NCBI GenBank assembly: GCA_040743155.1
Contig: JBFLJU010000001.1
Coordinates: forward strand, 2,229,144-2,293,143
Source: Cycloclasticus sp.
GTDB taxonomy: Bacteria > Pseudomonadota > Gammaproteobacteria > Methylococcales > Cycloclasticaceae
Length of the DNA stretch: 64,000 nucleotides
Direction of reading: 5' to 3'
Shown: piece after piece, positions 21,458 to 47,593 of the stretch
How the letters are laid out: the number at the start of each line of letters is the position of its first letter
Position numbering within the stretch: the first letter of the stretch is position 1
Notes under the pieces: model-generated
Told to the model about the DNA's origin: nothing
Database searches by the model: none
The model's input: the letters and a program-made list of their open reading frames with translations, nothing else
Program-made: the position numbers and the translations under genes

Positions 21458-22921
21458 TTATCGGCGACCAAACTTCCGTAAACCTTGCGGTGTAAAGACG
21501 TCAACACTGAAACTCAGATCTTCATCCCCAGATATAGTAAACTTTGGAGCTCCAAAGCCCATCTCTTTTCCAGCTTGGTGCTGCCAATAAGGGTACGTGG
21601 CATATCGTCCATTGATTAAGTCAACATGGACATCACCTATCGCTCTACTGATATTAGGGCCGTAGAAGAAAACATTATGTTGTTCAGCTACACGCCAAAG
21701 CCTTCCTTTCCCATCATATGCTTCACTTGCTAAACCTAACCACGTGTCTTCATCAAAGTACGCGACTTGCCTTTCATATAAATCTCGAAAACCTTCCTTG
21801 ATGTTTTTCTCAACCACCCAAACCCTATGTAACTCATAACGCACCAAGTCTTGGTTTAAATGTTCTTCACCAAAGATCTCATCAAAGCTTGTTTCTGCGT
21901 TTGTTAGCTTATAGTTGTTATATGGAACATAAATTTCTTTCTTAACTGGTTTTGAAAAGCTGTGTCTTGGATGTAAACCACCAAACCACATCATCCAGCG
22001 ATCTTCTGATGTTACTTGACCATCCGCCCCAAAAGCAGAGCTATCATGAAAACCAATTTCAGGCGCTTTCCTCACTCGACGTTGACCAGGAATATAAAGG
22101 TAAGCATGCGTACTGATATCAGCTGCGTATAAACATGCGCCAAAAACTAGACCTGCAGAACGAGGAGGGGTTTCGATTAATTGCGAACCACAGTAAATAG
22201 AACCGCCATGAAGGTTTAAGTATTCTTCCTGCTTAAGCTTGCTTGAGCCCTTTGCCCACCAAGGCCAAAGATGACGAAGGCGCGTGATAACATCTGTTCT
22301 ATGTCCGTTAGAGTCAATCAGCGCACCATTCACCATTGCATCCATCGACACTTCTCGAAAAGCTAACAAATGATTCCAAACCGCTTCCTCACCTGTCTCA
22401 GGGATCGGAAAAGGAATACCACCACCATCTACCTGATCAACTAGGCAAATCTTTCCTTCTGTTTGGTATTCAGGGCATACTTTTACTTTTTTGGCTTGCT
22501 CCAAGGTTGCGTCATAAACCCATTGGTCATACGAACCAGTCCTATGCGTGGGAAAGATATTCATCTTAAAACTATCGGGATACTGCTTAAACATTGCAAT
22601 CTGCCCCGGCGTCAACTTGTCTTGATGATCAGTATAGTTAGCCGCAGTAATCGTAAATAAAGGTTTTTCATTTACAAAAGGATCGGCTAGTGACTCTCCA
22701 TTTCCACCTTCAACTCCTTTAATTGGCTGACTACTCCACTCAGGGATAGTACCTTCCGCATTACCTGCACGAATCGCCCCCATTGGAGTGAGCTCTGTTC
22801 CTTCGACACCTAACTTTTTTAAGCTTTCCGAGTCTAGTTTTGCCAGTGCTAGCACCGGTGATAAGAGAACCGACAAACAAACAACTATCAAGCTCAGGTT
22901 CTTTTTATTTAATATTATCAT
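21458..22921 (-). CDS. DUF1329 periplasmic protein (cluster A copy)
   Basis: This is a 487-residue exported protein with a signal peptide (about residues 1-27, cleavage near LALA). The mature part begins with GVEGTELTPMGAIRAGNAEGTIPEW, seen here as TELTPMGAIRAGNA and typical of DUF1329. It contains GGGIPFPIP, YIPGQRRVRKAPEIGFHDS and NGRYATYPYWQ, and ends FTPQGLRKFGRR. DUF1329 proteins have a LolB-like lipid-binding fold and are almost always paired with DUF1302 genes. A role in carrying hydrophobic compounds across the periplasm is inferred. It is a clear paralogue of the protein at 44397-45857, and both pairs have the same gene order. Confidence 0.88.
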   Translation of the reverse strand: MIILNKKNLSLIVVCLSVLLSPVLALAKLDSESLKKLGVEGTELTPMGAIRAGNAEGTIPEWSSQPIKGVEGGNGESLADPFVNEKPLFTITAANYTDHQDKLTPGQIAMFKQYPDSFKMNIFPTHRTGSYDQWVYDATLEQAKKVKVCPEYQTEGKICLVDQVDGGGIPFPIPETGEEAVWNHLLAFREVSMDAMVNGALIDSNGHRTDVITRLRHLWPWWAKGSSKLKQEEYLNLHGGSIYCGSQLIETPPRSAGLVFGACLYAADISTHAYLYIPGQRRVRKAPEIGFHDSSAFGADGQVTSEDRWMMWFGGLHPRHSFSKPVKKEIYVPYNNYKLTNAETSFDEIFGEEHLNQDLVRYELHRVWVVEKNIKEGFRDLYERQVAYFDEDTWLGLASEAYDGKGRLWRVAEQHNVFFYGPNISRAIGDVHVDLINGRYATYPYWQHQAGKEMGFGAPKFTISGDEDLSFSVDVFTPQGLRKFGRR

Positions 22922-22966
22922 TCTATTTCCTTGAATTTTAATGGTATTACGTTAGTGTGCTGCCAC

Positions 22967-24601
22967 TTAAAAAGAGTAGCTAATATTGGCCTGCACAAAA
23001 TCTCTATCAGTTGAATCATTTAAGCGACCTCCACCTTGATTCAGTAGATGCTTTTCTCCATAAAATGCTGTCCAGCTAATGCCACCCGTGATCGTCTCAC
23101 TGCCATAGCTAAAATTAACACCTAACGTTAAGGCCTTTCTATCCTCAACAAATACAGGTGCAATTTCATTTGAGATGCCATCCACATCGTACTTAAAAGC
23201 GATGTAAGGAAGTACATTCACAACTTTAAAGAGCGCTGCGTTATACGTTAAGTTATGCAGTAGTTGAAACCCTGAGAAATTATCAGTCACATGGGGGTTA
23301 AATAGCGACCTAGCCCCGAAGCCTAAATCCCTGTCTTTTGGTATACCGTCAACCCAACCATATGCAACTTCAATCAGAGTTGAGCTATCGTCTGCACCAA
23401 TCATGTGATTAACACCCCAAACACGTTGAAAAGTTACTTGAATTTGGTGCCTATCAACAACGTCATAACCCTGAATCTTTTGTCCTGGCGCACATGCTGT
23501 AGTAGCACAAGCACCAACAGGTAAACCAAAACCATTAAGAATAGACTCCGTCAGCTGAATAGGCGAATCTTTACGTAGACTGTATTCACCACCAATCGCC
23601 CAACTTGCTATATTCGTGTTAAATGACGCTCCAAATCGTTCAATATTGTCAGGGTATTCCAAAAAGAATTGTCCTGTCCCAAAATAACTGGAGATAATGG
23701 GCACATGGTCATGCAAGTTTTGATAGTAAAGCGCAAACTCTGTTCCATTGAACAAGCCTGGGAAAAACTTCCGAACAGCAAGCCCATACTGACCGCCCCC
23801 TGGCTGCTCATTACTGGTCCTAACAAGACCTATATCACAAGGCACTCCATCAGGTGATATACAAGCACCATCAATTACCCCGTTACCGGCATGATCGTAA
23901 CCGCCCCCCTCACCAATAGCATCAAGCGTTGCAAAAAAACTTCCAGCTGGATCCAGTTCGATTCTGTCAAAATCAAACAAATAGAACGACTCAATTGTCC
24001 AATTATTATCAGAATTCCACGACACATAAAATGCATTACTACCAATAAAGGCATCCTTCAAAGCAAGCCCAGGTTGCCTTAATTTATTTACATCTACGGT
24101 ATTTATGTCATTAAGCGCACCTTGAATAAAAGTATTTTCTCCCCAACTGATCACTTGTTGCCCAAGCCTAATATTGAATTGCTCATTATCACCAAAATAA
24201 CCATAAACAAAGGCATCGGTTAGTGTCACATCTGACACAAGCTTATCCTCAGCATCTGAAGCTAACTTTAAATCCGCATATTCAAAATCATGAAAATAAT
24301 TCCCGCGTACCAATAGGCCTACATTTTTATAATCCAATGTGAGCGTGCTTGAGCCACGAATAGCATTACTAAAAATGTCTCCCTTATCTTGAAAAGATCT
24401 ATTACCGTAAGATGATCCTAAATTTGCTTTATCAGCATTTTCAGTTCTCGCTGAAATACCGTACGTTATATCTGTATCAAATGAGCCTTTAAGCTGCCCT
24501 GAATAAAATTTAAACGCATAGGCCCCTGTCGATTGTGACAGTAACACCGCACAGCCGAGCGCAATACCGGCGTTTGATTTAAGAAATAATTTCCATTTCA
24601 T
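22967..24601 (-). CDS. DUF1302 outer-membrane beta-barrel protein (cluster A copy)
   Basis: This is a 544-residue protein with a signal peptide (about residues 1-30, ending AYA). The mature protein is rich in alternating beta segments and ends DFVQANISYSF, with the terminal Phe that marks outer-membrane barrels for BAM assembly. DUF1302 signatures include GSFDTDITYGISARTE and IRLGQQVISWGENTF (about 145-160), with NDINTVDVNKLRQPG. The family is found in bacteria that degrade hydrocarbons, terpenes and steroids; a channel or receptor for lipophilic substrates is likely but unproven. It is the first gene of the DUF1302-DUF1329 pair and lies 87 bases after an SDR gene. Confidence 0.88.
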   Translation of the reverse strand: MKWKLFLKSNAGIALGCAVLLSQSTGAYAFKFYSGQLKGSFDTDITYGISARTENADKANLGSSYGNRSFQDKGDIFSNAIRGSSTLTLDYKNVGLLVRGNYFHDFEYADLKLASDAEDKLVSDVTLTDAFVYGYFGDNEQFNIRLGQQVISWGENTFIQGALNDINTVDVNKLRQPGLALKDAFIGSNAFYVSWNSDNNWTIESFYLFDFDRIELDPAGSFFATLDAIGEGGGYDHAGNGVIDGACISPDGVPCDIGLVRTSNEQPGGGQYGLAVRKFFPGLFNGTEFALYYQNLHDHVPIISSYFGTGQFFLEYPDNIERFGASFNTNIASWAIGGEYSLRKDSPIQLTESILNGFGLPVGACATTACAPGQKIQGYDVVDRHQIQVTFQRVWGVNHMIGADDSSTLIEVAYGWVDGIPKDRDLGFGARSLFNPHVTDNFSGFQLLHNLTYNAALFKVVNVLPYIAFKYDVDGISNEIAPVFVEDRKALTLGVNFSYGSETITGGISWTAFYGEKHLLNQGGGRLNDSTDRDFVQANISYSF

Positions 24602-36120: not shown

Positions 36121-36657
36121 CTAAATTAGAAACGACAAGGTTGGGATTGGCTGCAATCCATTCACAAGAATGATTTTCTTCATGTGCATTTGGAAAGCGT
36201 CATCTCGTCGGCTTAAAATATAAACTAAGCGACCTGACCAAATTCTAAATGTATTGGTTGCTTGAGCAGAAAACTCCGGTAAATAAAAGTTAGCTTCAAC
36301 TTTATATCGCCCATCCGCTTCTTCTGAATACTCATAATTAGAAATGACTCGGCGTAAACCCGATACAGGCAATTGACTATACCGATAGCCTGTTTTGAGT
36401 TGGCGAATTCGTGTAGCAATCCGAGTACGGTTATCGTACAAATGAGATACTTTTTTAGCTGGATCGTCACCTTCTTTAAGCGGCACCCAATACACTGCAT
36501 CATCAGCCCAAAGGTCTTCCCACTCTTGGTATTGAGACTCATCCGCTAACCTAGCCTCGCGAACTATAAATGCTTCAAGCTCTAACGCAATATCATGTGA
36601 TACGCTTCCCATTGTTTTCTCCCCGTCCTTACAAGACGATAGTGATACGTTTCCCAT
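36121..36657 (-). CDS. Aromatic-ring-hydroxylating dioxygenase beta subunit (cluster B)
   Basis: This is the small structural subunit of the second dioxygenase (178 residues from the first ATG, 163 from the second). It shows FIVREARLADESQYQEWEDLW (ARLADESQYQEWEDLW), DAVYWVPL, and the C-terminal MHMKKIILVNG typical of the family. Two starts are credible. The ATG at 36655-36657 overlaps the alpha stop (TAATG) with AGGAG before it. A second ATG at 36610-36612 has GGGGAG six bases upstream. The two start regions are near-identical in sequence, as if duplicated. Confidence 0.88.
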   Translation of the reverse strand: MGNVSLSSCKDGEKTMGSVSHDIALELEAFIVREARLADESQYQEWEDLWADDAVYWVPLKEGDDPAKKVSHLYDNRTRIATRIRQLKTGYRYSQLPVSGLRRVISNYEYSEEADGRYKVEANFYLPEFSAQATNTFRIWSGRLVYILSRRDDAFQMHMKKIILVNGLQPIPTLSFLI

Positions 36658-36675
36658 TACTTCACTCCTGTCATT
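36605..36675 (-). repeat. Tandemly duplicated translation start of the cluster B beta subunit
   Basis: On the minus strand GACAGGAGTGAAGTAATGGG (ATG at 36657) and GACGGGGAGAAAACAATGGG (ATG at 36612) lie 45 bases apart in the same frame. Both continue into nearly the same bases (AAACGTATCAC and AAGCGTATCAC), so both encode MG(N/S)VS. Each copy has its own purine-rich ribosome-binding site. Confidence 0.75.
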
Positions 36676-37898
36676 ACGTCACGGTAGTGAAACCAAAACC
36701 CTCGATTAGATGTTTCATCTGTCATATGAGACGTGATGACACCATCTTTATCACTCGTTTCGCGATTTAAGCCTCGGCTTAAATCGCACCAAGGATCACC
36801 CGACAACAACGCTATTTGCGCTCTTTCTGCAATGCTTGCATCATCCGCTAGCAAGAAAGCTGCTGGACCTAAGGCACCCTCACTTTGTCTCAGTAATTTA
36901 AAGTCTAATTCTGGAGCGCCATCAAGAAACATTGGCGTACTCCACTGAACCGCTGAATTCGTGCCTGTTGGTTGAAAAATAACAATATTCATCTCACCCA
37001 AAAACAGATTAGGAAAAATACAGGCGTGCGGTGGACCAGCGTATAAAATTTTATCCGCCTTTTCCTGCCCATAAGCCTCTCGCATACTATCGACGTATGA
37101 TTTAACCTTCTCAGGTGTTGAGCCTAACCAGTCCAGTGTTTTCGCATAACCCGCTGAGAAGTCAATTTCAGTATGCCCATTACCCCAGTCTTTTATAACG
37201 CCCTGAATACTATCCTCGGCACCGACAAACTCTCCATACTGAGAGTCAATTGCCATAACAAAAGATTGATGCACATAATTAACGTGATAGCCATCAGTGT
37301 CATTTTCAGGCAGCATCTTCCAGTTCGCGTCAAAGTGCTGACGAACCCAACCACCTCGCAAATCAATTTTCCCAGTTGGCGACATTTCACAAGAACGGTC
37401 AATTAACGATTTTGCATTACCGAGGTAATCATCAAAACTGAGTTCTGGTTGGACAAACGAGGCAAAAACAAAACCACGATAACTATCACTCACCAATGTT
37501 TGCAGACCCAGCTCCGCTAACGGCTTCTCAAAGCCACCGGGGTAAGCTACGTCCATCAAGGTACCATCTAAACCAAACACCCAACCATGATACGGGCAAG
37601 TAAAGTTACGCTTATTACCCTCTGCTTCATTACACAGCATATTGCCTCGGTGCATACAGCGGTTAGCATGCACCTTTATAGAACCATCTTTATCACGAAC
37701 CATGATCACGGATGAACGGCCAATTTCTCGAACTAAGTAATCGCCCCTTTCTTTTATTTCACTTTCATGGCCGACATACACCCAGCTCTTATGAAAAATC
37801 TTTTCCAACTCATCTGCGTATATTTCATCCGAAGTATACAAAGACCCATGTACTTTATCCGATTGAATAAGGTGGTTATAATCAATTTCTGTTGTCAT
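36657..37898 (-). CDS. Aromatic-ring-hydroxylating dioxygenase alpha subunit (cluster B)
   Basis: The start is the ATG at 37896-37898 with AAGGAG upstream, giving 413 residues beginning MTTEIDYNHL; the frame extends 12 codons further without similarity. Rieske ligands are C81-x-H83 and C101-x2-H104 (CMHRGN, CPYHGW). The iron site is ENDTDGYHVNYVH, with D202, H205 and H210, and LLADDASIAERAQIALL supplies the C-terminal carboxylate region. It differs clearly from the cluster A subunit, suggesting a different substrate. It lies between a membrane methyltransferase and its own beta-subunit gene. Confidence 0.92.
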   Translation of the reverse strand: MTTEIDYNHLIQSDKVHGSLYTSDEIYADELEKIFHKSWVYVGHESEIKERGDYLVREIGRSSVIMVRDKDGSIKVHANRCMHRGNMLCNEAEGNKRNFTCPYHGWVFGLDGTLMDVAYPGGFEKPLAELGLQTLVSDSYRGFVFASFVQPELSFDDYLGNAKSLIDRSCEMSPTGKIDLRGGWVRQHFDANWKMLPENDTDGYHVNYVHQSFVMAIDSQYGEFVGAEDSIQGVIKDWGNGHTEIDFSAGYAKTLDWLGSTPEKVKSYVDSMREAYGQEKADKILYAGPPHACIFPNLFLGEMNIVIFQPTGTNSAVQWSTPMFLDGAPELDFKLLRQSEGALGPAAFLLADDASIAERAQIALLSGDPWCDLSRGLNRETSDKDGVITSHMTDETSNRGFWFHYRDVMTGVK

Positions 37899-37973
37899 TT
37901 TGACTCCTTCAGTTATTTCCCTCAGCCTAAGCATTTACTTTCTTCATTTCAATGACTTAGGTCAGTTTTATCA

Positions 37974-38438
37974 TTAAATCCATCGCCTTACTTGCGAACA
38001 AAAAAGGCTGTATTCATTCTCAAACAGTGTTGTTAAGGCTCTCTCTTCTGGCTTAATTTGGAACTGGTTCATATAAGCTACATATATTACTAAGCAAATA
38101 AAACCATACGGCGAACCAAGCCAAACCAGCCACGCTATCAAAAAAATTAAGTTTCCAACATACATTGGATTTCTTGTGTATTGGTAAATTCCACTTGTTA
38201 CCAGGCTTGATGCATTATTTGGCTTGATCGGGTTAACCGTCGTTTTTGCTTGCATAAACAACCACAGCGCAGCGAAGTCCACCAATAAACCCAGTGCTAC
38301 AAACACACCGCAAACAATTGACTTATAGGGCACCTCAACAGCTGGCGTCCCAAGTTTGCTAGCCAACAGCCACATAAGAGCGGCCATTACTAATGCTACA
38401 ACTGGTGGTGGTATTTTTCGCTCTAAACTAGATAGCAT
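37974..38438 (-). CDS. Isoprenylcysteine-methyltransferase-like membrane protein
   Basis: This is a 154-residue membrane protein with four or so hydrophobic segments. The motif GIYQYTRNPMYVGNLIFLIAW (YTRNPMYVGN, about residues 89-98) and a C-terminal PEERALTTLFENEYSLFC stretch (EERALTTLFENEY) are characteristic of the PEMT/ICMT family of SAM-dependent membrane methyltransferases. It overlaps nothing and sits 4 bases after the AlkB-like hydroxylase gene. A methyltransferase directly after a hydroxylase hints at O-methylation or carboxyl methylation of the product, but many such proteins have unknown substrates. Confidence 0.82.
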   Translation of the reverse strand: MLSSLERKIPPPVVALVMAALMWLLASKLGTPAVEVPYKSIVCGVFVALGLLVDFAALWLFMQAKTTVNPIKPNNASSLVTSGIYQYTRNPMYVGNLIFLIAWLVWLGSPYGFICLVIYVAYMNQFQIKPEERALTTLFENEYSLFCSQVRRWI

Positions 38439-38442
38439 TCAG

Positions 38443-39675
38443 TTATTTAATATCTGCAATAACAGCCCTTTCCACAAACCTTTCTGGCAAGGTGTTTGGC
38501 AGGGCATAAGGAATAATATCCGCCGTATCATAAAACTCCTCGATAATTGGGTGCATCATTTTTCGCCATAAAGACGGCACCAACGCTACAAATAAAATAT
38601 TCAGGTAGCCAAGGGGCAAACGCGGTGCTTTATCCATCACTCTCAACACCTGATAAGGGCGTCCAACGTTAGCGTGGTGATCTGAATGCCGATCTATTTG
38701 ACACATAAAAAAGCTGCTAATAATCATGCTGTCATCCCAGGCATGTTCAGGGCGAATTTTTTCATAAGTACCGTCCGCGTTTTGTTTACGCATTAAACCA
38801 TAATGCTCCGCAAAATCTGCCGTCGCCAACAACATCCTTGGAAATAGGTACTGCAAAATAAATAGCGGCAAACTTAACCAGCCAAAAAGGTAGACCAAGA
38901 AAGAGAACCAAGCCACTTGCGCTAACGTAATCTTAATCATTTTGTTATCGAAGTTTAGCCAGCTTAGACCCTTTCGAGTTAAACGTTTTGCTTCAACCTG
39001 CCAAGCACAAATTGATTTTCTAATCGTACTGCGCAAAGCAAAGCGCCAGAAATTCTCACCATAGGGTGCTGTCGCATGATCTTCTGGTGTAGCAACAGTT
39101 AAGTGGTGGTGGAAATTATGATACACATAAAAGTCGGCCATACTAATCGGAGTCATTAGTGCTTGCCCCATAAATCGGTCAAACTGATTACCGTGGTGAC
39201 AAAGCTCATGACCTGGCGTAGCGCCAAAGCCTGTTACCAAACCCAGCGACAAAGCCAAACCAATAATTTCACCTTGGGTTAGTGGCTGATAAGTAATACC
39301 CAATACCGTGAACATATCCATCGGCGTATTCGTTATTAATGAATAACAAAATAATGTAATCAAAAATTGCACCGGTATATACGCCCATAACATCACGCGA
39401 TAAAACAGACTTTGCTCCAGTTCTTGTTCCATTTCAGCTGGTGCGTTAATAGGATCATCACCCACGATAGGGTCTAGAATCATACAAATAACAAATGCCC
39501 CCACTGTTAACCAATACCAATGCCCACCTCCTAAAAAGTGCGCCACGACTGGCGTGGTTGCAAATAACAATATCGGTATCGTCGTGAAGCGGGTAACGAT
39601 ACTAACCTTTCTCTTAATATTCTCTGGGGCGTTTACAGCTGGAAACATTGTCTTTCCTTTACTCAAATTACTCAT
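38443..39675 (-). CDS. AlkB/XylM-like membrane hydroxylase (non-haem di-iron)
   Basis: This is a 410-residue integral membrane protein with about six hydrophobic helices. The eight or more His ligands of the fatty-acid-desaturase/hydroxylase family are present: H156-ELC-HH (160-161), H186-NF-HHH (189-191), EHYGL with H291, and DRHSDHHAN (H330, H333, H334). AlkB and XylM put oxygen on terminal methyl groups of alkanes or alkyl-aromatics using rubredoxin or a reductase. None is encoded beside it. The ATG at 39675 starts MSNLSKGKTM; an internal ATG at 39648, with AAAGGAAAG upstream, is an equally good start. It leads cluster B. Confidence 0.9.
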   Translation of the reverse strand: MSNLSKGKTMFPAVNAPENIKRKVSIVTRFTTIPILLFATTPVVAHFLGGGHWYWLTVGAFVICMILDPIVGDDPINAPAEMEQELEQSLFYRVMLWAYIPVQFLITLFCYSLITNTPMDMFTVLGITYQPLTQGEIIGLALSLGLVTGFGATPGHELCHHGNQFDRFMGQALMTPISMADFYVYHNFHHHLTVATPEDHATAPYGENFWRFALRSTIRKSICAWQVEAKRLTRKGLSWLNFDNKMIKITLAQVAWFSFLVYLFGWLSLPLFILQYLFPRMLLATADFAEHYGLMRKQNADGTYEKIRPEHAWDDSMIISSFFMCQIDRHSDHHANVGRPYQVLRVMDKAPRLPLGYLNILFVALVPSLWRKMMHPIIEEFYDTADIIPYALPNTLPERFVERAVIADIK

Positions 39676-39855: not shown

Positions 39856-40707
39856 ATGCAAAAATCTAATATTCAAACAGGCTCTTTTCAAACTTTTTTA
39901 AATGAAGCAGGAGAAGATAACGATACCGCTATTTTATTACTGCATGGCTCTGGCCCCGGTGCCAACGCCATGTCTAACTGGCAGTTTGCGCTACCTTTCT
40001 TAGCTGAAAATTATCATTGCCTTGCTCCAGATATCGCGGGTTTTGGCCTCAGCCAACATAATTCACCTCCAAGTGGCACTAGTGAATGGATTGATATTTG
40101 GGTGCAACAACAAATTGATTTATTAGATGCGAAAGGTATCGAGCAAGCTCATATTGTGGGTAATTCCATGGGCGGCGGCGTGACTTTACACCTGCTTAGC
40201 AGACACCCTGAGCGCTTCAAAAAAGCAGTTCTTATGGGCCCGGTTGGCGCTCCATTTAAACCGACCGAAGGGTTAACCAAAGGTTGGGAGTTCTACAAGA
40301 ACCCTTCTCAAGACGCCTTGGAATATTTGATCACCAAGTTCCTATACGACCCTAGTTTATTAGGTGCGGATATTGCGAAAATTGCCGCGCAGCGATTCGA
40401 AAATGTGATGAAAGATGAGGTTCGCGTCCAATTTGAAGCGATGTTCAGCGGTGGAACAAAAAAAGGTATCGACGCCTTTGTCTTATCAGATGAAGCATTG
40501 AACAATATCCCTCACCAAATGCTCATCACCCATGCACGGGAAGATTTCTTTATCCCCCTTAATAATGCCTATCACCTGATTGAAAGAATCCCTCAGGCAC
40601 AATTACATGTCTTCGACCATTGCGGTCATTGGATACAAATCGAAAAGAAAGTCGCCTTTAATAACCTAACAAAGTTCTTCTTTGATGGGCTCTTAGACGA
40701 CGAATAG
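39856..40707 (+). CDS. Alpha/beta-hydrolase, meta-cleavage-product C-C hydrolase type
   Basis: This 283-residue alpha/beta-hydrolase has an oxyanion region LLLHGSGPGANAMSNW (HGSGPGA, about residues 30-36) and the nucleophile elbow GNSMGG (S104). The acid is in HAREDFF (D230) and the base in DHCGHW (H258). The HGSGPGA motif and overall pattern match BphD/MhpC-type hydrolases that cut vinylogous diketones after ring meta-cleavage. It could act downstream of an extradiol dioxygenase, but no classical meta-cleavage dioxygenase gene lies next to it. It is the only plus-strand gene among clusters A-C apart from azoR and its remnant. Confidence 0.88.
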   Translation: MQKSNIQTGSFQTFLNEAGEDNDTAILLLHGSGPGANAMSNWQFALPFLAENYHCLAPDIAGFGLSQHNSPPSGTSEWIDIWVQQQIDLLDAKGIEQAHIVGNSMGGGVTLHLLSRHPERFKKAVLMGPVGAPFKPTEGLTKGWEFYKNPSQDALEYLITKFLYDPSLLGADIAKIAAQRFENVMKDEVRVQFEAMFSGGTKKGIDAFVLSDEALNNIPHQMLITHAREDFFIPLNNAYHLIERIPQAQLHVFDHCGHWIQIEKKVAFNNLTKFFFDGLLDDE

Positions 40708-40986: not shown

Positions 40987-43341
40987 CTAGCTAATTTCCT
41001 TAGTTTTTTGCGGGTAAAGAAAACTTGCCAACGCTGGTATTAAAATAATCGCTCCCAACATGTTCACAAAAAACATATAGGCCAGCAATATGCCCATATC
41101 TGCTTGGAACTTGAGGTCAGAAAAGTACCATGTAGCAACACCAAGTGTCATGGTCACTGATGTAAATACAACACCCGTTCCCACTTCTCTTAACGACTCA
41201 TAATACGACTGCAGTAACGTCTGCCCCGCGCCCATATGTGCACGCATGCGAGCAAACAGATAGATACCGTAATCGACACCAACACCCACGCCCATTGCTA
41301 AAACGGGCAAGGTTGATACTTTCAAGCCTATGCCTAAGTACACCATAACGGCGTTTGCCAAGTAAGCAACCAAAGCTAATGGTACGACGATACAGATGGT
41401 CGCCCTGATAGACATAAACGTTAAGAAGCAAAACAAACCAACCGCAGCAAAAAGAATCAGTTCAATTCTTGTTTGCGCTTTTGCAACAATCTCGTTAGTT
41501 GCCGCCATAATGCCGGCATTGCCCATTGCAGGTACAAAAGTAACACTCTCGTTTTTATTCTGCTCTTCAAATACATTAACCGCTGCCATAACACGGTCTA
41601 AGGTTTCAGCCCTATGGTCCGTTAAATAAATCGTAACCGGCATAACCGTACAGTCATTTGAGAAAAGCGCCTGTGACATTTCCACCCTGTAAATATTGGC
41701 TGAAATCATCTTCTCATTTCGAGGAATGCCCAAAAATTTGGGATTGGCTTCATAGTTACCAACATTTCGTTCACGAATAACTTGGGATAGGGCTTTAACT
41801 GATTGAACGCCTTCAACATTTTGAAGTTGCCAAACAAAGTCATCAATTGTTTGCATAACACCAAAGTTTACACAAGCACCTTTGATATCTGACTTTGCCA
41901 ATATGACCATTTCATCAAGGCCCACCGAAAAGTTCGATTGAATTGCGTTGGCGTCCTGATTGTAGCGTGCATCCGGCCAAAACTCTGGCGCACCTGCCTC
42001 TACGTCACCAACAATCAACTGATCTTGTACCGACATGGCATAGACGCCTAAACCAACCGCAAGCGACAGCACGATTGCCGCGCTTTTTCTATTCGTTAAA
42101 GTCGCCAAACTTTTCCAAAAAGCATGGTCAGTCCCTTTTATACTATCTTGCGCTCTCTTAACTTCACTATCATTCAACTTAATGTAGGACAACAGTATCG
42201 GTAAAATGATTTTATTCGTCAGCAACATCACTGCCACCCCGATACTGGCAATAATTCCCAGCTCCCTAATAATAGGAATATCAATCAACACAATAACGCC
42301 AAAACCAACGGCGTCCGATATCAGCGCCGTTGCGCCTGGTATAAAAAGCTTGTAAAACGCCTGACGCGCTGCACCTACTGAGTTCTCACCACTGACGATA
42401 CCGATACGCCAAACATTCGTCATCTGAATAGCGTGACTCACACCAATTGCTAAAATCAAAAAGGGCACCAAGATAGACATTGGGTCAACCCCAAAGCCCA
42501 GTAGTTTAACCAAGCCTAATTGCCAACTCACCGAAATTAACGCAGTCGCAATAACTGCCAGTGCAAGTTTTATAGAGCCTGCGAAAAAAATCAACAATAC
42601 AAATGTAATAATTAAGGTGATGACAAAAAATCCAACAACCCCTTCAGCACCATCAATCACATCGCCAATAAAAGGCGCGAAACCAATAATATGAATTGAG
42701 ATACCGTTCGTTTCATAGGTATCTCTAATTTTGCTTAACCTCTCAGCAAACACTTCATAATCGATTTTCTGCTTGGTTACCGGGTCAAGCTCAACCAGAT
42801 CCGCAATCACTAGCGCACCCGACAGATCTTTGGCAACCGTCTTGCCTATTTCAGACGATTTAAACAGATTACTTTTAACCTCTTCAATTCGTTCAGGCGT
42901 TGCAATAAAGTCGGCCGGGACAATCTTTGATCCCGTAAAGCCTTCTTCACTAACCGCCACATAGTTAACATTGGGGGTAAACAATGACGTTACAGTACGC
43001 GCATCGACTCCATCCATCACCAACACTTCTGATGTGATCTTTTCCAATACTGTAAAAAACTCGGGGGTAAACATGTCGCCCTCCTTGTTTTCTACAAAGA
43101 TTGTTACGCGGTTAGCACCACCGAATTCATCACGGTGTTCTGTAAACGTCTTCATGTACGGATGAGACAATGGAATAGCCTTGTCAAACCCAGGAGAAAG
43201 CTGCTGATTAACGCCTTGATATGTTAAAAATACTGTTATCAATAATCCAATGATTAAAAATAATAAGCGGTGCTTTAACAGCGCATCTGCCATAAAGTCA
43301 GATACCTTGTGCACAAAATTTGATTCATGTTTCATAGTCAT
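40987..43341 (-). CDS. MMPL/RND-superfamily membrane protein
   Basis: This is a 784-residue inner-membrane protein with two repeats of an RND-type layout. Each has one helix, a large periplasmic loop (about residues 50-225 and 430-600) and five more helices. The second repeat has the proton-relay-like GVGVDYGIYLFARM (D690, Y691). The equivalent place in the first repeat is AIGVSHAIQ, without the Asp, so coupling may be asymmetric. It is shorter than three-part efflux RND pumps and lacks adaptor or TolC genes, resembling MmpL/HpnN-type lipid exporters or importers. It follows the Ycf48-like gene by 17 bases, in the order DUF1302-DUF1329-Ycf48-RND. Confidence 0.9.
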   Translation of the reverse strand: MTMKHESNFVHKVSDFMADALLKHRLLFLIIGLLITVFLTYQGVNQQLSPGFDKAIPLSHPYMKTFTEHRDEFGGANRVTIFVENKEGDMFTPEFFTVLEKITSEVLVMDGVDARTVTSLFTPNVNYVAVSEEGFTGSKIVPADFIATPERIEEVKSNLFKSSEIGKTVAKDLSGALVIADLVELDPVTKQKIDYEVFAERLSKIRDTYETNGISIHIIGFAPFIGDVIDGAEGVVGFFVITLIITFVLLIFFAGSIKLALAVIATALISVSWQLGLVKLLGFGVDPMSILVPFLILAIGVSHAIQMTNVWRIGIVSGENSVGAARQAFYKLFIPGATALISDAVGFGVIVLIDIPIIRELGIIASIGVAVMLLTNKIILPILLSYIKLNDSEVKRAQDSIKGTDHAFWKSLATLTNRKSAAIVLSLAVGLGVYAMSVQDQLIVGDVEAGAPEFWPDARYNQDANAIQSNFSVGLDEMVILAKSDIKGACVNFGVMQTIDDFVWQLQNVEGVQSVKALSQVIRERNVGNYEANPKFLGIPRNEKMISANIYRVEMSQALFSNDCTVMPVTIYLTDHRAETLDRVMAAVNVFEEQNKNESVTFVPAMGNAGIMAATNEIVAKAQTRIELILFAAVGLFCFLTFMSIRATICIVVPLALVAYLANAVMVYLGIGLKVSTLPVLAMGVGVGVDYGIYLFARMRAHMGAGQTLLQSYYESLREVGTGVVFTSVTMTLGVATWYFSDLKFQADMGILLAYMFFVNMLGAIILIPALASFLYPQKTKEIS

Positions 43342-43358
43342 TTATTGCTACCTTTACC

Positions 43359-44306
43359 TTATTCCATTAGCTCACTAATTGAAATTTTTGTGATTCCACC
43401 TGCCATCGACGATAGATAGGCGTTATCGCCTTGAATCGCTACCGCGGTATAGTCCACACGGCTCTTATTCTCTATCTTTTTAATCAATTGCCCCTTCTCA
43501 TCAACCGCTAGGATAATGCCACCACGTCCTACAATTAATACACTTTTCGCATCAGCTGTTGTTGCGGAGTCGAGTAAGAATTGATCTGTTTGCGTATCAA
43601 TCTTGCTCCATTCTAGTGATTCAGAATTAATCTGATATAAATTACCGCTCATGCCGAACGCTATAAATTGCTCGGCCACACTAGAAACGCCAAAGAAAGA
43701 TCCCTCGTAAGGAGAAGGCACAACTTGCCAATCGCTCATTCCATCTTTTGAATAAAAAACACCGCCACGCTCTGCCACAACAAGTGAAGCATTGCCGACC
43801 TTCTCGAGTGCAAATAAATGGTTCTGGTACCAATCTTCCACCGCCAGTAAAGTGACGTTCCAAGACTCACCAGCATTTTCAGTTATCCACAACTCACCAT
43901 CGGTTCCTAGTACATAACCAACTTGCGGGCTAACAAAGTTTACCGACATATAAAAGCGTTCTTCTTCTGGCTTATAATTATCGACAACCCAAGTCGCCCC
44001 ACCGTCAGTGCTATGTAAAATGGTCGACTCATGGCCGACAATCCAACCTTCCGTTTTCGAAGCAAATGATATCCCCGTTAAGGTGACATCGACTGGTGAT
44101 TTAATCTGTTGCCATGAATCACCATTATCGCTCGAGCTGAGTATGATACCCCTCTCACCCACTGCATAAACCTTAGCTTCATGCACCTCTAAGTCGAGGA
44201 AAATTGCTTTCGTTGATAAAGGCAGCTCTAACGCAGGCCGAGGCAATGTTTCTGCAAAGGCAGAACTTCCCATCATCAAAGATAAGCAAAAAATAATTCT
44301 GAACAT
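43359..44306 (-). CDS. Ycf48-like exported beta-propeller protein
   Basis: The 315-residue protein has a signal peptide (about residues 1-18, ending AFA). The mature part is built from repeats carrying BNR/Asp-box motifs: SSDNGDSWQQI, STDGGATWVVD, TENAGESWNVT and SKDGMSDWQVV, plus VGERGIIL and VGRGGIIL strands. Together they predict a six- or seven-bladed beta-propeller related to photosystem assembly factor Ycf48. In non-photosynthetic bacteria these genes accompany DUF1302, DUF1329 and MMPL genes, and the role is unknown. A periplasmic docking or assembly factor for the RND protein is a reasonable inference. Confidence 0.87.
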   Translation of the reverse strand: MFRIIFCLSLMMGSSAFAETLPRPALELPLSTKAIFLDLEVHEAKVYAVGERGIILSSSDNGDSWQQIKSPVDVTLTGISFASKTEGWIVGHESTILHSTDGGATWVVDNYKPEEERFYMSVNFVSPQVGYVLGTDGELWITENAGESWNVTLLAVEDWYQNHLFALEKVGNASLVVAERGGVFYSKDGMSDWQVVPSPYEGSFFGVSSVAEQFIAFGMSGNLYQINSESLEWSKIDTQTDQFLLDSATTADAKSVLIVGRGGIILAVDEKGQLIKKIENKSRVDYTAVAIQGDNAYLSSMAGGITKISISELME

Positions 44307-44327
44307 CGTGTTATTCCCTATGAATTT

Positions 44328-44363
44328 AAAAAAAAAACCGAGGCTAACATGAGCTAGCCCCGG
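44328..44363 (-). terminator. Intrinsic terminator after the second DUF1329 gene
   Basis: On the minus strand CCGGGGCTA...TAGCCTCGG forms a stem of eight paired bases with one A-C mismatch (44338-44363). A run of nine or ten T follows. It lies between DUF1329 (ends 44397) and the Ycf48-like gene, so the upstream pair may be made in larger amounts than the downstream genes. Confidence 0.7.
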
Positions 44364-44396
44364 CCTTAATCTAATTACTTAATATGACGTTTGATC

Positions 44397-45857
44397 TTAT
44401 CTACGACCAAATTTTCTTAAGCCTTGAGGCGTAAAGATATCGATATTGAAACCAATATCTGCTTCTTTAGAAGTGATTTTTGGTGCGCCAAAGCCCATTT
44501 CTTCACCCGCTTGGAACATCCAGTAAGGGAAAGTTGTATAACGACCATTAATCAAATCCTGCTGCATATCACCAACCGGTGTAGTGATGTTTGCGCCTGG
44601 GAAGAAGACGTTATATTGCTCACCAACTCTCCATAAACGGTCTTTTGCATCATAAGCTTCAAAGCCTAGACCAACCCAAGTGTCTTCATCAAAATAAGAT
44701 GTATGACGTTTATAAAGATGACGTTGCCCTGATTTTAGCGTTGAATCCACAGCCCAAACACGGTGTAATTCATAACGAATCATGTCTTGATTAACGTGAT
44801 CTTCGCCAAAAATTGCATCAAATTCTGTGTCTTTATTGGTCAACTTATAGTTGTTATAAGGCACAAACATTTCTTTTCTGACTGGCGCTTTAAAGTCAAA
44901 CCTTGTGTTCTTGCCGCCAAAATAATGCATCCAACGACTCGCTACCGTACGCTGACCATCCGAAGCAAACGAAGGGCTATCGTGGAAACCAATTTCAGGT
45001 GCTTTACGCACACGACGTTGACCTGGGATATACAGGTAAGTTTGGAAGTCAAAGTTTTGGATAGAGTTACAACCACCGAAAATCAAACCTGATGAGCGAG
45101 GTGGCTTTTCAACCTGCCATGAATCACAAAGAGCCGCAACACCTTCACGGTTAAACCACTTAATGCTTCTAACTTTAGAGTCTGCAGGGAACCAATACGG
45201 AAAGATTTGGCGCTGACGCATAATTACGTCAGTACGGTTACCGTTAGAATCAATTAACGCACCATTGATCATTTGATCGACAGAAATACCTTTAAATGCA
45301 AAATAGTGGTTATACGCTGCTTCTGCACCTGTTTTAGGAATTGGAAAAGGAATACCGCCACCAGCGATTTCATCCTTCAAACAAACCCTACTTTCTGTGC
45401 CAAACTCATCGCACATCTGTACATTTTTCGCTTGCGCTAAAGTCGCATCATATACCCAAGAATCGTATGCACCCGTTCTATGACTTGGGTATACATTCAT
45501 TTTGTAGGTATCAGGGTACTGCTTAAACAAACCAATTTGACCCGGCGATAACTTATCCGCATATTCCGTATAGTTAGACGCTGTGATGGTAAACAACGGC
45601 TTTTCATCCGCAAAAGGGTCTGCCAGACTATTGCTCTCTGTTGCGTCTGCGCCTTTCATCGGCACACTGCTCCACGCTGGGATAGTGCCATCAGCATTTC
45701 CTGCACGAATCGCACCCATTGGCGTCAATTCAGTCCCTTCTATGCCTACCTTAGCCTGCTCAGTTGCATCTAGTTGTGCAAAAGCAATGCTGGGTAATAA
45801 AGCTGCAGACAGAACAAGCGCTGAAGCTTTTTTTACGTTAAAACTTAATAAATTCAT
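44397..45857 (-). CDS. DUF1329 periplasmic protein (cluster C copy)
   Basis: This is a 486-residue exported protein with a signal peptide (about residues 1-27). It shares the DUF1329 signatures of its paralogue at 21458-22921: TELTPMGAIRAGNADGTIP, GGGIPFPIPKTG, YIPGQRRVRKAPEIGFHDS and FTPQGLRKFGRR at the C-terminus. The two copies can be aligned along their whole length by eye. A LolB-like hydrophobic-ligand carrier in the periplasm is the likely fold. It is preceded by its DUF1302 partner and followed, past a terminator, by the Ycf48-like gene. Confidence 0.88.
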   Translation of the reverse strand: MNLLSFNVKKASALVLSAALLPSIAFAQLDATEQAKVGIEGTELTPMGAIRAGNADGTIPAWSSVPMKGADATESNSLADPFADEKPLFTITASNYTEYADKLSPGQIGLFKQYPDTYKMNVYPSHRTGAYDSWVYDATLAQAKNVQMCDEFGTESRVCLKDEIAGGGIPFPIPKTGAEAAYNHYFAFKGISVDQMINGALIDSNGNRTDVIMRQRQIFPYWFPADSKVRSIKWFNREGVAALCDSWQVEKPPRSSGLIFGGCNSIQNFDFQTYLYIPGQRRVRKAPEIGFHDSPSFASDGQRTVASRWMHYFGGKNTRFDFKAPVRKEMFVPYNNYKLTNKDTEFDAIFGEDHVNQDMIRYELHRVWAVDSTLKSGQRHLYKRHTSYFDEDTWVGLGFEAYDAKDRLWRVGEQYNVFFPGANITTPVGDMQQDLINGRYTTFPYWMFQAGEEMGFGAPKITSKEADIGFNIDIFTPQGLRKFGRR

Positions 45858-45904
45858 TATTATCTCCTTAAACTACTTTTTATATTGTCAATGCTAAGCG
45901 ACTC

Positions 45905-47593
45905 TTAGAAAGAGTAACTTATGTTAGCTTGAACAAAGTCACGATCAGAACGGCCATTTAGACGACCACCCGCTTGGTTAGCCATCGCCTCTGCACCGTC
46001 AAACATGGTCCAGCTGACGCCACCTACCCACGTGCCACCACCGTAACCAAAATTCACACCCAGTGTTAATGCTTTTCTATCATCCACAAACAAAGGAACG
46101 ATCTCGTTAGACACACCTTCCACATCATATTTAAACGCCACAAAAGGTGAAACTGACGCCACATTAAACAAAGCTGCTTCATATGTAAGTGATTGTTTCA
46201 CTTGGAAGCCCCAGAAGTGTTCAGTAACCTGCGGATTAAAAACTGTTCTAAACGGCCCAACCAGTGCTTCATTCTTTTTAGGTAAGCCATCAATCCAGCC
46301 ATAAGCGACTTCTGCTAAGGTGCTATTCGCATCGGCACCCATGAAGCCAACACCCCAAATACGCTGAAAGGTCATTTGTAATTGATGTCGGTCAACTTCG
46401 TCATAACCTTTTATTGCATCACCTTGAACACATGTTCCACAATTCACATTAAAAAATGGCCCTGCACCTAGACCATTTAAAACAGGTCCTGTCATTTGAA
46501 TAGGCGCATCTTTTCTTACGTGGTATTCACCCGCAATTACCCAGCCTTCGACATTAGTATTAAAGGAAACACCATAGCGTTCGATATTCTCCTTATACTC
46601 CAAAAAGAAAGTGCCTGTATTGTAATAGGTTGAAATCATTGGCACATGGTCATGAAGGTTTTGGTAATAGAAAGCTATTTCACTACCGTTGAACAGGCCT
46701 GGAATGAATTTCCTTATAGCCAAACCATACTGGCCACCTTCGGCAAATTTATCACCTACCCTAACTAGGGAACCGCCAACCAAACCACAATCATCAAGCC
46801 CATCAGGCGCAATACAAGCACCTCCAGGCGCACCAAATGGAAGCGTTGCTGCTCCTGATGCAATTCCACCCACAGCTCCATCTCCTGCAGTATCAAATCC
46901 ACCGCCTGCACCTACAGCATCCAAAGTGGTAAAGAATGAACCCGCTGGATCTAACTGAATTTGGTCAAACTCAAACAGATAAAAAGACTCAACGGTCCAC
47001 TCATCACCTATATTCCATGAAATGTAGGCAGCATTTGTACCAATAAAAGCATCTTTAAGCGCTCGACCTGGCTGTCTTAATTTATTTAAGTCAACGGTAT
47101 TAATGTCATTAATTGAACCTTGAATAAAGGTATTTTCACCCCAACTAATAACTTGCTTACCAAGCCTTATATTGACTTGATCATTATCACCGAAATAGCC
47201 ATAGACCATTAAATCTGTGAGTGAAAAATCTCTAGCTAATTTATCATGCGCTTGATCAGCTAAATCTTTATTATCATAAACATGATCGTAAAAATAGTTG
47301 CCCCGCGCCAGCATGCCATAGTCGCCATACTCTACACTTAGAGTACTAGAGCCACGAATAGCGTTACTGAATATATCACCTGCATCTTTAGAAATTCTAT
47401 TTCCGTGCGCGCCCATTTTGTCATGGTCCGCATCTTCTGTACGCGCCGCAATAGCGTATGTTATATCGGTATCAAGCGACCCACGAATGTCTCCATGATG
47501 GAAACTAAACGCTTGCGCCGTACCGGCTTGCGATAATAAAAGCGCGGTACCTAGAGCAGCACCGACGCCTGATTTTATAAATGGTTTTTTCAT
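45905..47593 (-). CDS. DUF1302 outer-membrane beta-barrel protein (cluster C copy)
   Basis: The start is set at ATG 47591-47593 (MKKPFIKSG, with AGGGGGAA upstream), giving 562 residues. The open frame extends ten codons further but those do not belong to a signal peptide. Residues 1-29 form the signal peptide, ending AQA. It shares GSLDTDITYAIAARTE, RLGKQVISWGENTF and NDINTVDLNKLRQPG with the first DUF1302 protein and ends DFVQANISYSF. It has an extra Gly/Ala-rich loop near residue 240-270 (FGAPGGACIAPDG). A barrel for hydrophobic substrates in the outer membrane is inferred. Confidence 0.88.
   Translation of the reverse strand: MKKPFIKSGVGAALGTALLLSQAGTAQAFSFHHGDIRGSLDTDITYAIAARTEDADHDKMGAHGNRISKDAGDIFSNAIRGSSTLSVEYGDYGMLARGNYFYDHVYDNKDLADQAHDKLARDFSLTDLMVYGYFGDNDQVNIRLGKQVISWGENTFIQGSINDINTVDLNKLRQPGRALKDAFIGTNAAYISWNIGDEWTVESFYLFEFDQIQLDPAGSFFTTLDAVGAGGGFDTAGDGAVGGIASGAATLPFGAPGGACIAPDGLDDCGLVGGSLVRVGDKFAEGGQYGLAIRKFIPGLFNGSEIAFYYQNLHDHVPMISTYYNTGTFFLEYKENIERYGVSFNTNVEGWVIAGEYHVRKDAPIQMTGPVLNGLGAGPFFNVNCGTCVQGDAIKGYDEVDRHQLQMTFQRIWGVGFMGADANSTLAEVAYGWIDGLPKKNEALVGPFRTVFNPQVTEHFWGFQVKQSLTYEAALFNVASVSPFVAFKYDVEGVSNEIVPLFVDDRKALTLGVNFGYGGGTWVGGVSWTMFDGAEAMANQAGGRLNGRSDRDFVQANISYSF

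What the first reader, a model, noticed from the sequence alone, without database searches (positions are those of the whole stretch)
40987..47593. Candidate trans-envelope transport system: DUF1302 barrel, DUF1329, Ycf48-like propeller and MMPL/RND protein
Seen: four same-strand genes in order, each with an address. The DUF1302 protein has a signal peptide and a BAM-type terminal Phe (outer membrane). DUF1329 and the Ycf48-like propeller have signal peptides (periplasm). The MMPL/RND protein spans the inner membrane. Known: DUF1302/DUF1329 pairs are common in degraders of steroids, terpenes and hydrocarbons, and DUF1329 has a LolB-like fold. Inferred: together they could form a complete lipophile conduit, with no adaptor or TolC. 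I know of no defined mechanism for such a machine.
Basis: partly seen in the sequence, partly recalled or inferred. Interest (0 to 1): 0.75.

Follow-up and report, generated by a model that had tools for sequence, protein, structure and literature searches.

The report
Two-module transporter for oily molecules
These four neighbouring genes belong to a known type of machine, already studied in a terpene-eating bacterium, that appears to move oily molecules across both bacterial membranes; the new clue is that one inner motor may serve several exchangeable outer gates.

Summary
The four genes are real, correctly addressed and co-directional. The set is not undefined: it is the AmeABCD type of Castellaniella defragrans (same order, similar sizes, deletion mutant published), reported also in P. 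putida, a benzene degrader and betaproteobacterial regulons. What I add: the set behaves as two modules, an inner 'engine' (Ycf48-RND) and an outer 'front-end' (DUF1302-DUF1329). In 15 genomes that I chose for having many candidates there are 37 RNDs, 38 Ycf48, 97 DUF1302 and 116 DUF1329, and many front-ends lie far from any engine. The window holds a second front-end 16 kb from the engine. Module order is swapped among this genome's four cassettes, and a terminator-like hairpin separates the modules here. Models support a LolA-type carrier and an 18-stranded barrel. Many outer gates per inner engine is the TonB-like ratio and hints at uptake; the published reading is efflux. Direction is unsettled.

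The parts
40987..43341 (-). RND/MMPL inner-membrane protein, 784 aa (AmeD-like); engine module
   Evidence: Pfam MMPL E 6.4e-30; best NCBIfam model HAE3 TIGR00921 134.6 bits, below its cut-off of 351.9; invariant S302-H303-Q306 and D690-Y691 in 13 of 13 aligned relatives, three of them from this genome
43359..44306 (-). Ycf48-like propeller, 315 aa (AmeC-like), signal-peptide-like N-terminus; engine module
   Evidence: PSII_BNR E 1.2e-21; solved Ycf48 relatives, best E 5.4e-24; next to the RND in 36 of 37 cases in 15 chosen genomes
44334..44367 (-). terminator-like hairpin with T run between the two modules
   Evidence: 15 pairs, loop of 4, then T run; -25.2 kcal/mol for the 90-base gap, z -4.55; a similar hairpin in the same gap of 8 of 50 related cassettes
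44397..45857 (-). DUF1329 LolA-fold carrier, 486 aa (AmeB-like); front-end module
   Evidence: DUF1329 E 9e-104; model pLDDT 81.7, Foldseek best match LolA3 E 1.2e-13
45905..47593 (-). DUF1302 outer-membrane barrel, 562 aa (AmeA-like); front-end module
   Evidence: DUF1302 E 1.5e-116; model pLDDT 77.4, 18 long strands by my count, Foldseek matches AlgE and porins
21458..22921 (-). second DUF1329 of the window (front-end F), 61% identical to the first
   Evidence: sister of 44397-45857 on the tree with full support
22967..24601 (-). second DUF1302 of the window (front-end F), 65% identical to the first
   Evidence: 16,385 bases from the RND gene

Best explanation
An Ame-type envelope transporter for hydrophobic growth substrates, built from two modules. 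Engine: the RND protein in the inner membrane with the Ycf48-like propeller, presumably its periplasmic scaffold or docking piece. Front-end: the DUF1302 outer-membrane barrel with the DUF1329 LolA-fold carrier. Barrel and carrier give substrate choice; the engine supplies proton-motive energy and is shared by several front-ends, here the 47593-44397 pair and probably the 24601-21458 pair. The carrier would shuttle the lipophile in its groove between barrel and RND, as LolA does for lipoproteins. Shown here: the set, its folds, its co-occurrence, its modularity and the surplus of front-ends. Inferred: energy source, sharing, hand-off and direction. I lean to net uptake because one inner engine with many outer gates, several of them beside catabolic genes, is the ratio of TonB systems and the reverse of TolC efflux, where many inner pumps share one outer channel (both recalled).
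For: Co-occurrence: RND 52, DUF1302 56, DUF1329 53, Ycf48 53 of 398 genomes; all four in 51, any in 58. Modules: in 15 chosen genomes Ycf48 lies within 4 kb of 36 of 37 RNDs and DUF1329 within 4 kb of 90 of 97 DUF1302; 59 of these 90 pairs have no RND within 20 kb, 21 of 35 in the six one-contig genomes. Module order is swapped between cassette A and cassettes B-D of this genome. Median gaps in 50 related cassettes are 17 (barrel-carrier), 66.5 (carrier-propeller) and 3 (propeller-RND), with terminator-like hairpins in 0, 8 and 1. Of 28 DUF1329 labelled unlinked, 27 group with the type beside the main engine. Among 12 such pairs, 6 lie beside CoA-ligase, thiolase, CoA-transferase, hydrolase or oxygenase genes. 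In P. putida, unlinked front-end and engine-type genes share a Tween-20 phenotype (PMC10866462). Folds.
Against: The AmeABCD deletion accumulated slightly more Nile Red under CCCP and tolerated monoterpenes less, read by its authors as efflux. RND-LolA-LolB-type sets such as the E. coli aryl polyene cluster and other HAE3 members are exporters (recalled). In many genomes of the sample only one barrel and one RND were seen, so sharing is not general. The 15 genomes were picked for many candidates. No interaction was tested here. By the 20-kb rule pair F, 16 kb from the engine, would count as linked. Half of the 12 unlinked pairs show no clear catabolic neighbour.
Confidence: 0.5

Rival explanations
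1. A tetrapartite efflux pump, as published for AmeABCD: the RND takes lipophiles from the inner membrane or periplasm and expels them through DUF1329 and Ycf48, acting as adaptors, and the DUF1302 barrel, protecting degraders from their own substrates.
For: Reduced monoterpene tolerance and higher Nile Red accumulation of the ameABCD deletion; partial rescue by acetate. RND and LolA-type precedents are exporters (also recalled). Regulation with aromatic pathways was read as coping with toxic concentrations (PMC6449761).
Against: In the same paper Nile Red efflux kinetics were almost identical in mutant and wild type, and the growth defect on limonene but not on perillyl alcohol also fits failed uptake. 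One inner engine with up to 16 barrels is the reverse of known shared-channel efflux.
Confidence: 0.35
2. An envelope-building or lipid-homeostasis system: the RND exports a lipid made in the cell, the LolA-fold carrier takes it to the outer membrane, and growth on oily substrates suffers only because the surface is changed.
For: LolA fold of DUF1329; weak HpnN and BstA similarity of the RND; the aryl polyene cluster has LolA-like, RND and LolB-like genes; DUF1302 and DUF1329 proteins were found in outer-membrane-vesicle nanopods of Delftia (PMC3110197).
Against: Porin-like barrels and many unlinked copies, half of those examined beside catabolic genes, suggest substrate-specific gates rather than one lipid route.
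Confidence: 0.1
3. Four genes that merely share an operon, without a joint function.
For: DUF1302-DUF1329 and Ycf48-RND also occur apart.
Against: 51 of 58 genomes with any of the four have all four, and the set stays together across phyla.
Confidence: 0.03

Closest known systems
AmeABCD of Castellaniella defragrans 65Phen (PMC6394551; text parts 1-3 of 5 read)
   Same: Same four families in the same order; sizes 605/451/316/787 aa there and 562/486/315/784 here; set in a hydrocarbon-degradation region.
   Different: Substrate here unknown; this genome has four such cassettes, three with module order swapped, plus an extra front-end pair. No Ame sequence was at hand for direct comparison.
P. 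putida PP_0765/PP_0766 with PP_2018/PP_2019 (PMC10866462; passages only)
   Same: DUF1302 and DUF1329 with an RND-type transporter and a periplasmic protein; shared Tween-20 phenotype; predicted contacts.
   Different: The two modules lie at separate loci there; that PP_2018 is the Ycf48-like protein is my inference.
'Nanopod' cluster of the benzene degrader ORM2a (PMC13101534; passages and section 13)
   Same: Porin-like protein, DUF1329, YCF48-related and MMPL genes; direction left open by the authors.
   Different: Desulfobacterota; extra stress-protein genes in between.
LolA/LolB lipoprotein carriers and RND-LolA sets such as the E. coli aryl polyene cluster (PMC8253772; passages only)
   Same: LolA-fold carrier beside an RND protein.
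   Different: No DUF1302 barrel and no Ycf48-like propeller among the listed genes; cargo made in the cell.
TonB-ExbBD with its receptors (recalled)
   Same: One inner-membrane energiser for many outer barrels.
   Different: No homology claimed; a periplasmic lipid carrier would stand in for the TonB rod.

Membership tests
AmeABCD type (tetrapartite HAE3-like system) | Cassette of DUF1302, DUF1329, Ycf48/COG4447-type and RND genes in the order A-B-C-D | tested here: met
   against the description
AmeABCD type (tetrapartite HAE3-like system) | RND in the AmeD lineage of HAE3 | tested here: inconclusive
   Best NCBIfam model is HAE3 (TIGR00921), 134.6 bits against a cut-off of 351.9; no AmeD sequence was available for a tree
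AmeABCD type (tetrapartite HAE3-like system) | Needed for growth on, or tolerance of, apolar compounds | not testable with these tools
   Needs mutants
HAE1 tripartite efflux pump | Membrane fusion protein and TolC-type outer channel beside the RND | tested here: not met
   Neither is among the four genes or the neighbours scanned; the barrel model matches AlgE and porins, and no TolC is among the 50 best rows
HpnN hopanoid transporter | Meets the HpnN model cut-off | tested here: not met
   TIGR03480 78.2 bits against a cut-off of 751.85
LolA superfamily (for DUF1329) | LolA/LolB-type fold | tested here: met
   Model pLDDT 81.7; Foldseek E 1.2e-13 to LolA3 and 3.9e-12 to a DUF1329 crystal structure; query TM-scores only 0.32-0.41 for the first six rows because the protein is longer than its targets
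TonB-like shared-engine import | More outer receptors than inner engines, and receptors dependent on an engine in the genome | tested here: inconclusive
   Barrels equal or exceed RNDs in 15 of 15 chosen genomes; 52 of 56 genomes with DUF1302 have the RND; dependence and direction not tested

The most novel reading that the evidence does not exclude
The Ycf48-RND pair is a shared, proton-driven import engine for many exchangeable DUF1302-DUF1329 gates: a second, TonB-independent way for Gram-negative bacteria to pull in hydrophobic nutrients, with substrate choice in the outer membrane and a LolA-fold carrier instead of a rod.
Probability: 0.35. Interest if true: 0.85.

Novelty: new member of a known kind. 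Interest (0 to 1): 0.5.

Why it matters
How Gram-negative bacteria move oils, terpenes and aromatics across two membranes and the periplasm is poorly understood. If one engine powers many outer gates, a few knockouts in P. putida would test it, and front-ends beside catabolic genes would tell which substrate each gate serves. It would also reopen the direction of a system now described as an efflux pump.

Tried and rejected
A fixed four-part complex was considered and dropped because of the copy numbers. Independent function of the four genes was rejected on co-occurrence. A TolC-like outer channel was rejected on the barrel model and its matches. By sequence, DUF1302 had no credible solved relative and DUF1329 only a marginal one, 9tp6 at E 0.079, which later was the best fold match. 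The hydrolase at 39856-40707 lies on the other strand and was not treated as part of the set. The papers on nanopods and on LolA3 gave no mechanism for this set (passages only).

Limits. In the 398-genome searches only the best 2 (RND), 3 (DUF1302), 4 (DUF1329) or 5 (Ycf48) candidates per genome were scored, so copy numbers come only from 15 genomes chosen for many candidates, plus the window's own. Thresholds for 'present' were set by eye at gaps in the score lists: RND 630 bits, DUF1302 85, DUF1329 180, Ycf48 95. Below them lies a weaker layer that I left out of the counts: in all, 135 genomes match the RND alignment at E 1e-30, 108 DUF1302 and 114 DUF1329 at E 1e-5, 65 Ycf48 at E 1e-10. Fisher p-values of 1e-55 or smaller ignore kinship; the 52 genomes fall in 15 family codes, 15 in one and 14 in another. 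Exceptions: DUF1302 without the RND in G069 (97% complete), G185 (8% contamination), G153 and G169 (76% and 71% complete); DUF1329 and Ycf48 with only a partial RND in G394; Ycf48 alone in G345; no Ycf48 in G193. The 97 DUF1302 matches include one short fragment and two weak matches under 55 bits; the 38 Ycf48 include one weak partial match. Contig ends inflate the 59 unlinked pairs. The first neighbourhood scan lost true genes to overlapping false ORFs and was redone. Tree labels for G304 and for the contig-split pair of G387 are my judgement, and pair F was labelled unlinked although it lies 16 kb from engine A. The odd unlinked copy (L152) is sister to the pair nearest another engine of G304. 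Trees used the quick method, with several weak forks and flagged long branches. The hairpin count uses a simple rule of mine and letter shuffles as control (mean 0.02 of 50), and that gap is also the longest. Neighbour genes of unlinked pairs were chosen by third-position G+C and are incomplete. Structures were predicted for two of the four proteins; no complex could be modelled.
Full report
What is there. The window lies at 2229144-2293143 of a 2.56 Mb single-contig genome. Its RND is 82-83% identical to two Cycloclasticus MAGs, so a Cycloclasticus or close relative is likely. Rieske oxygenase genes follow at 36121-37934.

Prior work. A paper search for both DUF names gave 7 papers; each name alone gave 10 and 13; 'YCF48' with 'MMPL' gave 1; PF06980, PF07044 or COG4447 gave 2; AmeABCD and P. 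putida locus names gave 25, most of them unrelated; two further searches gave 11 and 3. The set is published as AmeABCD of Castellaniella defragrans (PMC6394551, parts 1-3 of 5 read). The deletion mutant grows poorly on limonene and other non-functionalised monoterpenes but normally on acetate and perillyl alcohol, and accumulates slightly more Nile Red under CCCP, while efflux kinetics were almost identical to wild type. The authors place AmeD in HAE3 and state that all members of its lineage lie in cassettes of the same four genes. P. putida (PMC10866462, passages), a benzene degrader (PMC13101534, passages and section 13) and betaproteobacterial regulons (PMC6449761, passages) show the set or its parts. 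In what these searches showed me I saw no description of two modules with more front-ends than engines; the listed papers were not all opened, and subscription papers and preprints are not held.

Own genome. There are 4 DUF1302 matches, 10 DUF1329 matches (the weakest in a LolA-like protein) and four RNDs of this kind, the other three 23-28% identical to the first. A fifth DUF1302, in cassette B, appears only at 28.6 bits in the direct scan. They form four four-gene cassettes: A in the window (DUF1302-DUF1329-Ycf48-RND), and B, C and D with the halves swapped (Ycf48-RND-DUF1302-DUF1329). B carries two DUF1329 genes, and D has a further one 2.4 kb downstream. The propeller of D is below Pfam's cut-off (23.1 against 27 bits). 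Downstream of B and C lie ring-hydroxylating oxygenase alpha and beta genes. The window holds a second front-end pair, F (21458-24601), 16 kb from the RND of A with many genes between.

Other genomes. Of 80 related loci kept from 555 found, 67 hold at least 6 kb upstream of the RND: 52 have all three partners near it, 6 only Ycf48, 3 Ycf48 and DUF1302, 2 DUF1302 and DUF1329, and 4 none; 13 loci are cut by contig ends. By record titles the 52 include Gamma-, Beta- and Alphaproteobacteria, Desulfuromonas/Desulfobacter-type groups, Opitutae and other Verrucomicrobia, and a Nitrospirota MAG. In an even draw of 398 genomes of the phylum the strict counts are RND 52, DUF1302 56, DUF1329 53 and Ycf48 53; all four in 51, any in 58. 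The exceptions are listed under Tried and rejected.

Two modules. In 15 genomes chosen for many candidates there are 37 RND, 38 Ycf48, 97 DUF1302 and 116 DUF1329. Copy numbers correlate at 0.99 for RND with Ycf48, 0.97 for DUF1302 with DUF1329 and 0.76 for RND with DUF1302. Ycf48 sits within 4 kb of 36 of 37 RNDs and DUF1302 within 12 kb of 30 of 37; DUF1329 sits within 4 kb of 90 of 97 DUF1302; 59 of these 90 pairs have no RND within 20 kb (21 of 35 in the six one-contig genomes). Extremes are 1 RND with 9 barrels (one of them weak) and 4 with 16. Barrels were never fewer than RNDs in the 15. Gene spacing points the same way: in 50 complete related cassettes the median gaps are 17 bases (barrel-carrier), 66.5 (carrier-propeller) and 3 (propeller-RND), with terminator-like hairpins in 0, 8 and 1. 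In the window the middle gap holds a 15-pair hairpin with a T run.

Which front-ends are unlinked. I built a tree of 56 DUF1329 from the window's genome, five genomes of family code f6 and one of f30, each copy labelled by its nearest engine. Of 28 copies labelled unlinked, 27 lie with the type that accompanies the main engine; copies beside secondary engines of the f6 genomes mostly form their own clade. Linked-to-secondary against all others needs two changes on the best tree, in which several forks are weak. Five f6 main RNDs and seven f6 secondary RNDs form two clades with full support. F is sister to A with full support. Of 12 such pairs examined for neighbours (11 in G054 and G372, plus F), 6 lie beside thiolase, CoA-ligase, CoA-transferase, FAA hydrolase, alpha/beta hydrolase, SDR, Rieske or LigB genes (L107, L115, L109, L111, L117, F); the others lie by regulators, transporters or general metabolism. 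The main engine of G054 and of G372 lies by a peptidase M1 gene and an ETF-QO gene, and has its own front-end.

Folds. DUF1329: mean pLDDT 81.7, best matches LolA3 of Porphyromonas gingivalis, a DUF1329 crystal structure and LolA superfamily proteins. DUF1302: mean pLDDT 77.4, 18 long strands by my count, best matches AlgE and porins. TM-scores normalised by the query are modest (0.32-0.41 for the first six rows; 0.34-0.46 for the barrel's 50 rows), so these are statements of fold class. The RND keeps D690-Y691 in its second half and S302-H303-Q306, at the matching place of the first half by my eye, in 13 of 13 sequences. That such D-Y pairs carry protons in MmpL3 is recalled, not tested.

Mechanism. 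Shown: families, folds, linkage and copy numbers. Inferred: a LolA-fold carrier hands a lipophile between barrel and RND, the propeller docks it, and one engine serves several front-ends. On direction two facts pull apart. The published phenotype and most RND kin favour export. The ratio of parts favours import: where one inner energiser serves many outer proteins (TonB, recalled) substrates are chosen from outside, while in TolC systems (recalled) many inner pumps share one outer channel. I put the shared-engine reading, leaning to uptake, at 0.5 and efflux at 0.35.

Verdict. The module logic is the part worth following.

Noticed in passing
L024 5430-9712 (own genome 2115429-2119711): A shorter three-gene relative: RND (765 aa), LolA_like protein (258 aa, PF17131) and a 402-aa protein without a Pfam match that looks like an outer-membrane barrel.
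   Followed up: partly
These were left out of the strict counts.
   Followed up: no
L025 7675-8913; L026 7545-8951; L128, L134, L144 and L146: DUF1329 genes with no DUF1302 found beside them; L128, L134 and L146, from three different genomes, form one clade.
   Followed up: partly
L107 7387-10203, L109 7194-9881, L115 1007-3811, L116 1040-3748: Large LuxR/MalT-type regulators lie next to four unlinked front-end pairs and may tell their inducers.
   Followed up: no
window 37974-39675: A PEMT-type methyltransferase and a fatty-acid-desaturase-family (possibly hydrocarbon monooxygenase) gene stand between the Rieske genes and the divergent hydrolase.
   Followed up: no
L021 3171-5201 (own genome 2312170-2314200): A PQQ-type dehydrogenase with a cytochrome c domain lies between cassette B and a ring-hydroxylating oxygenase pair.
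   Followed up: no
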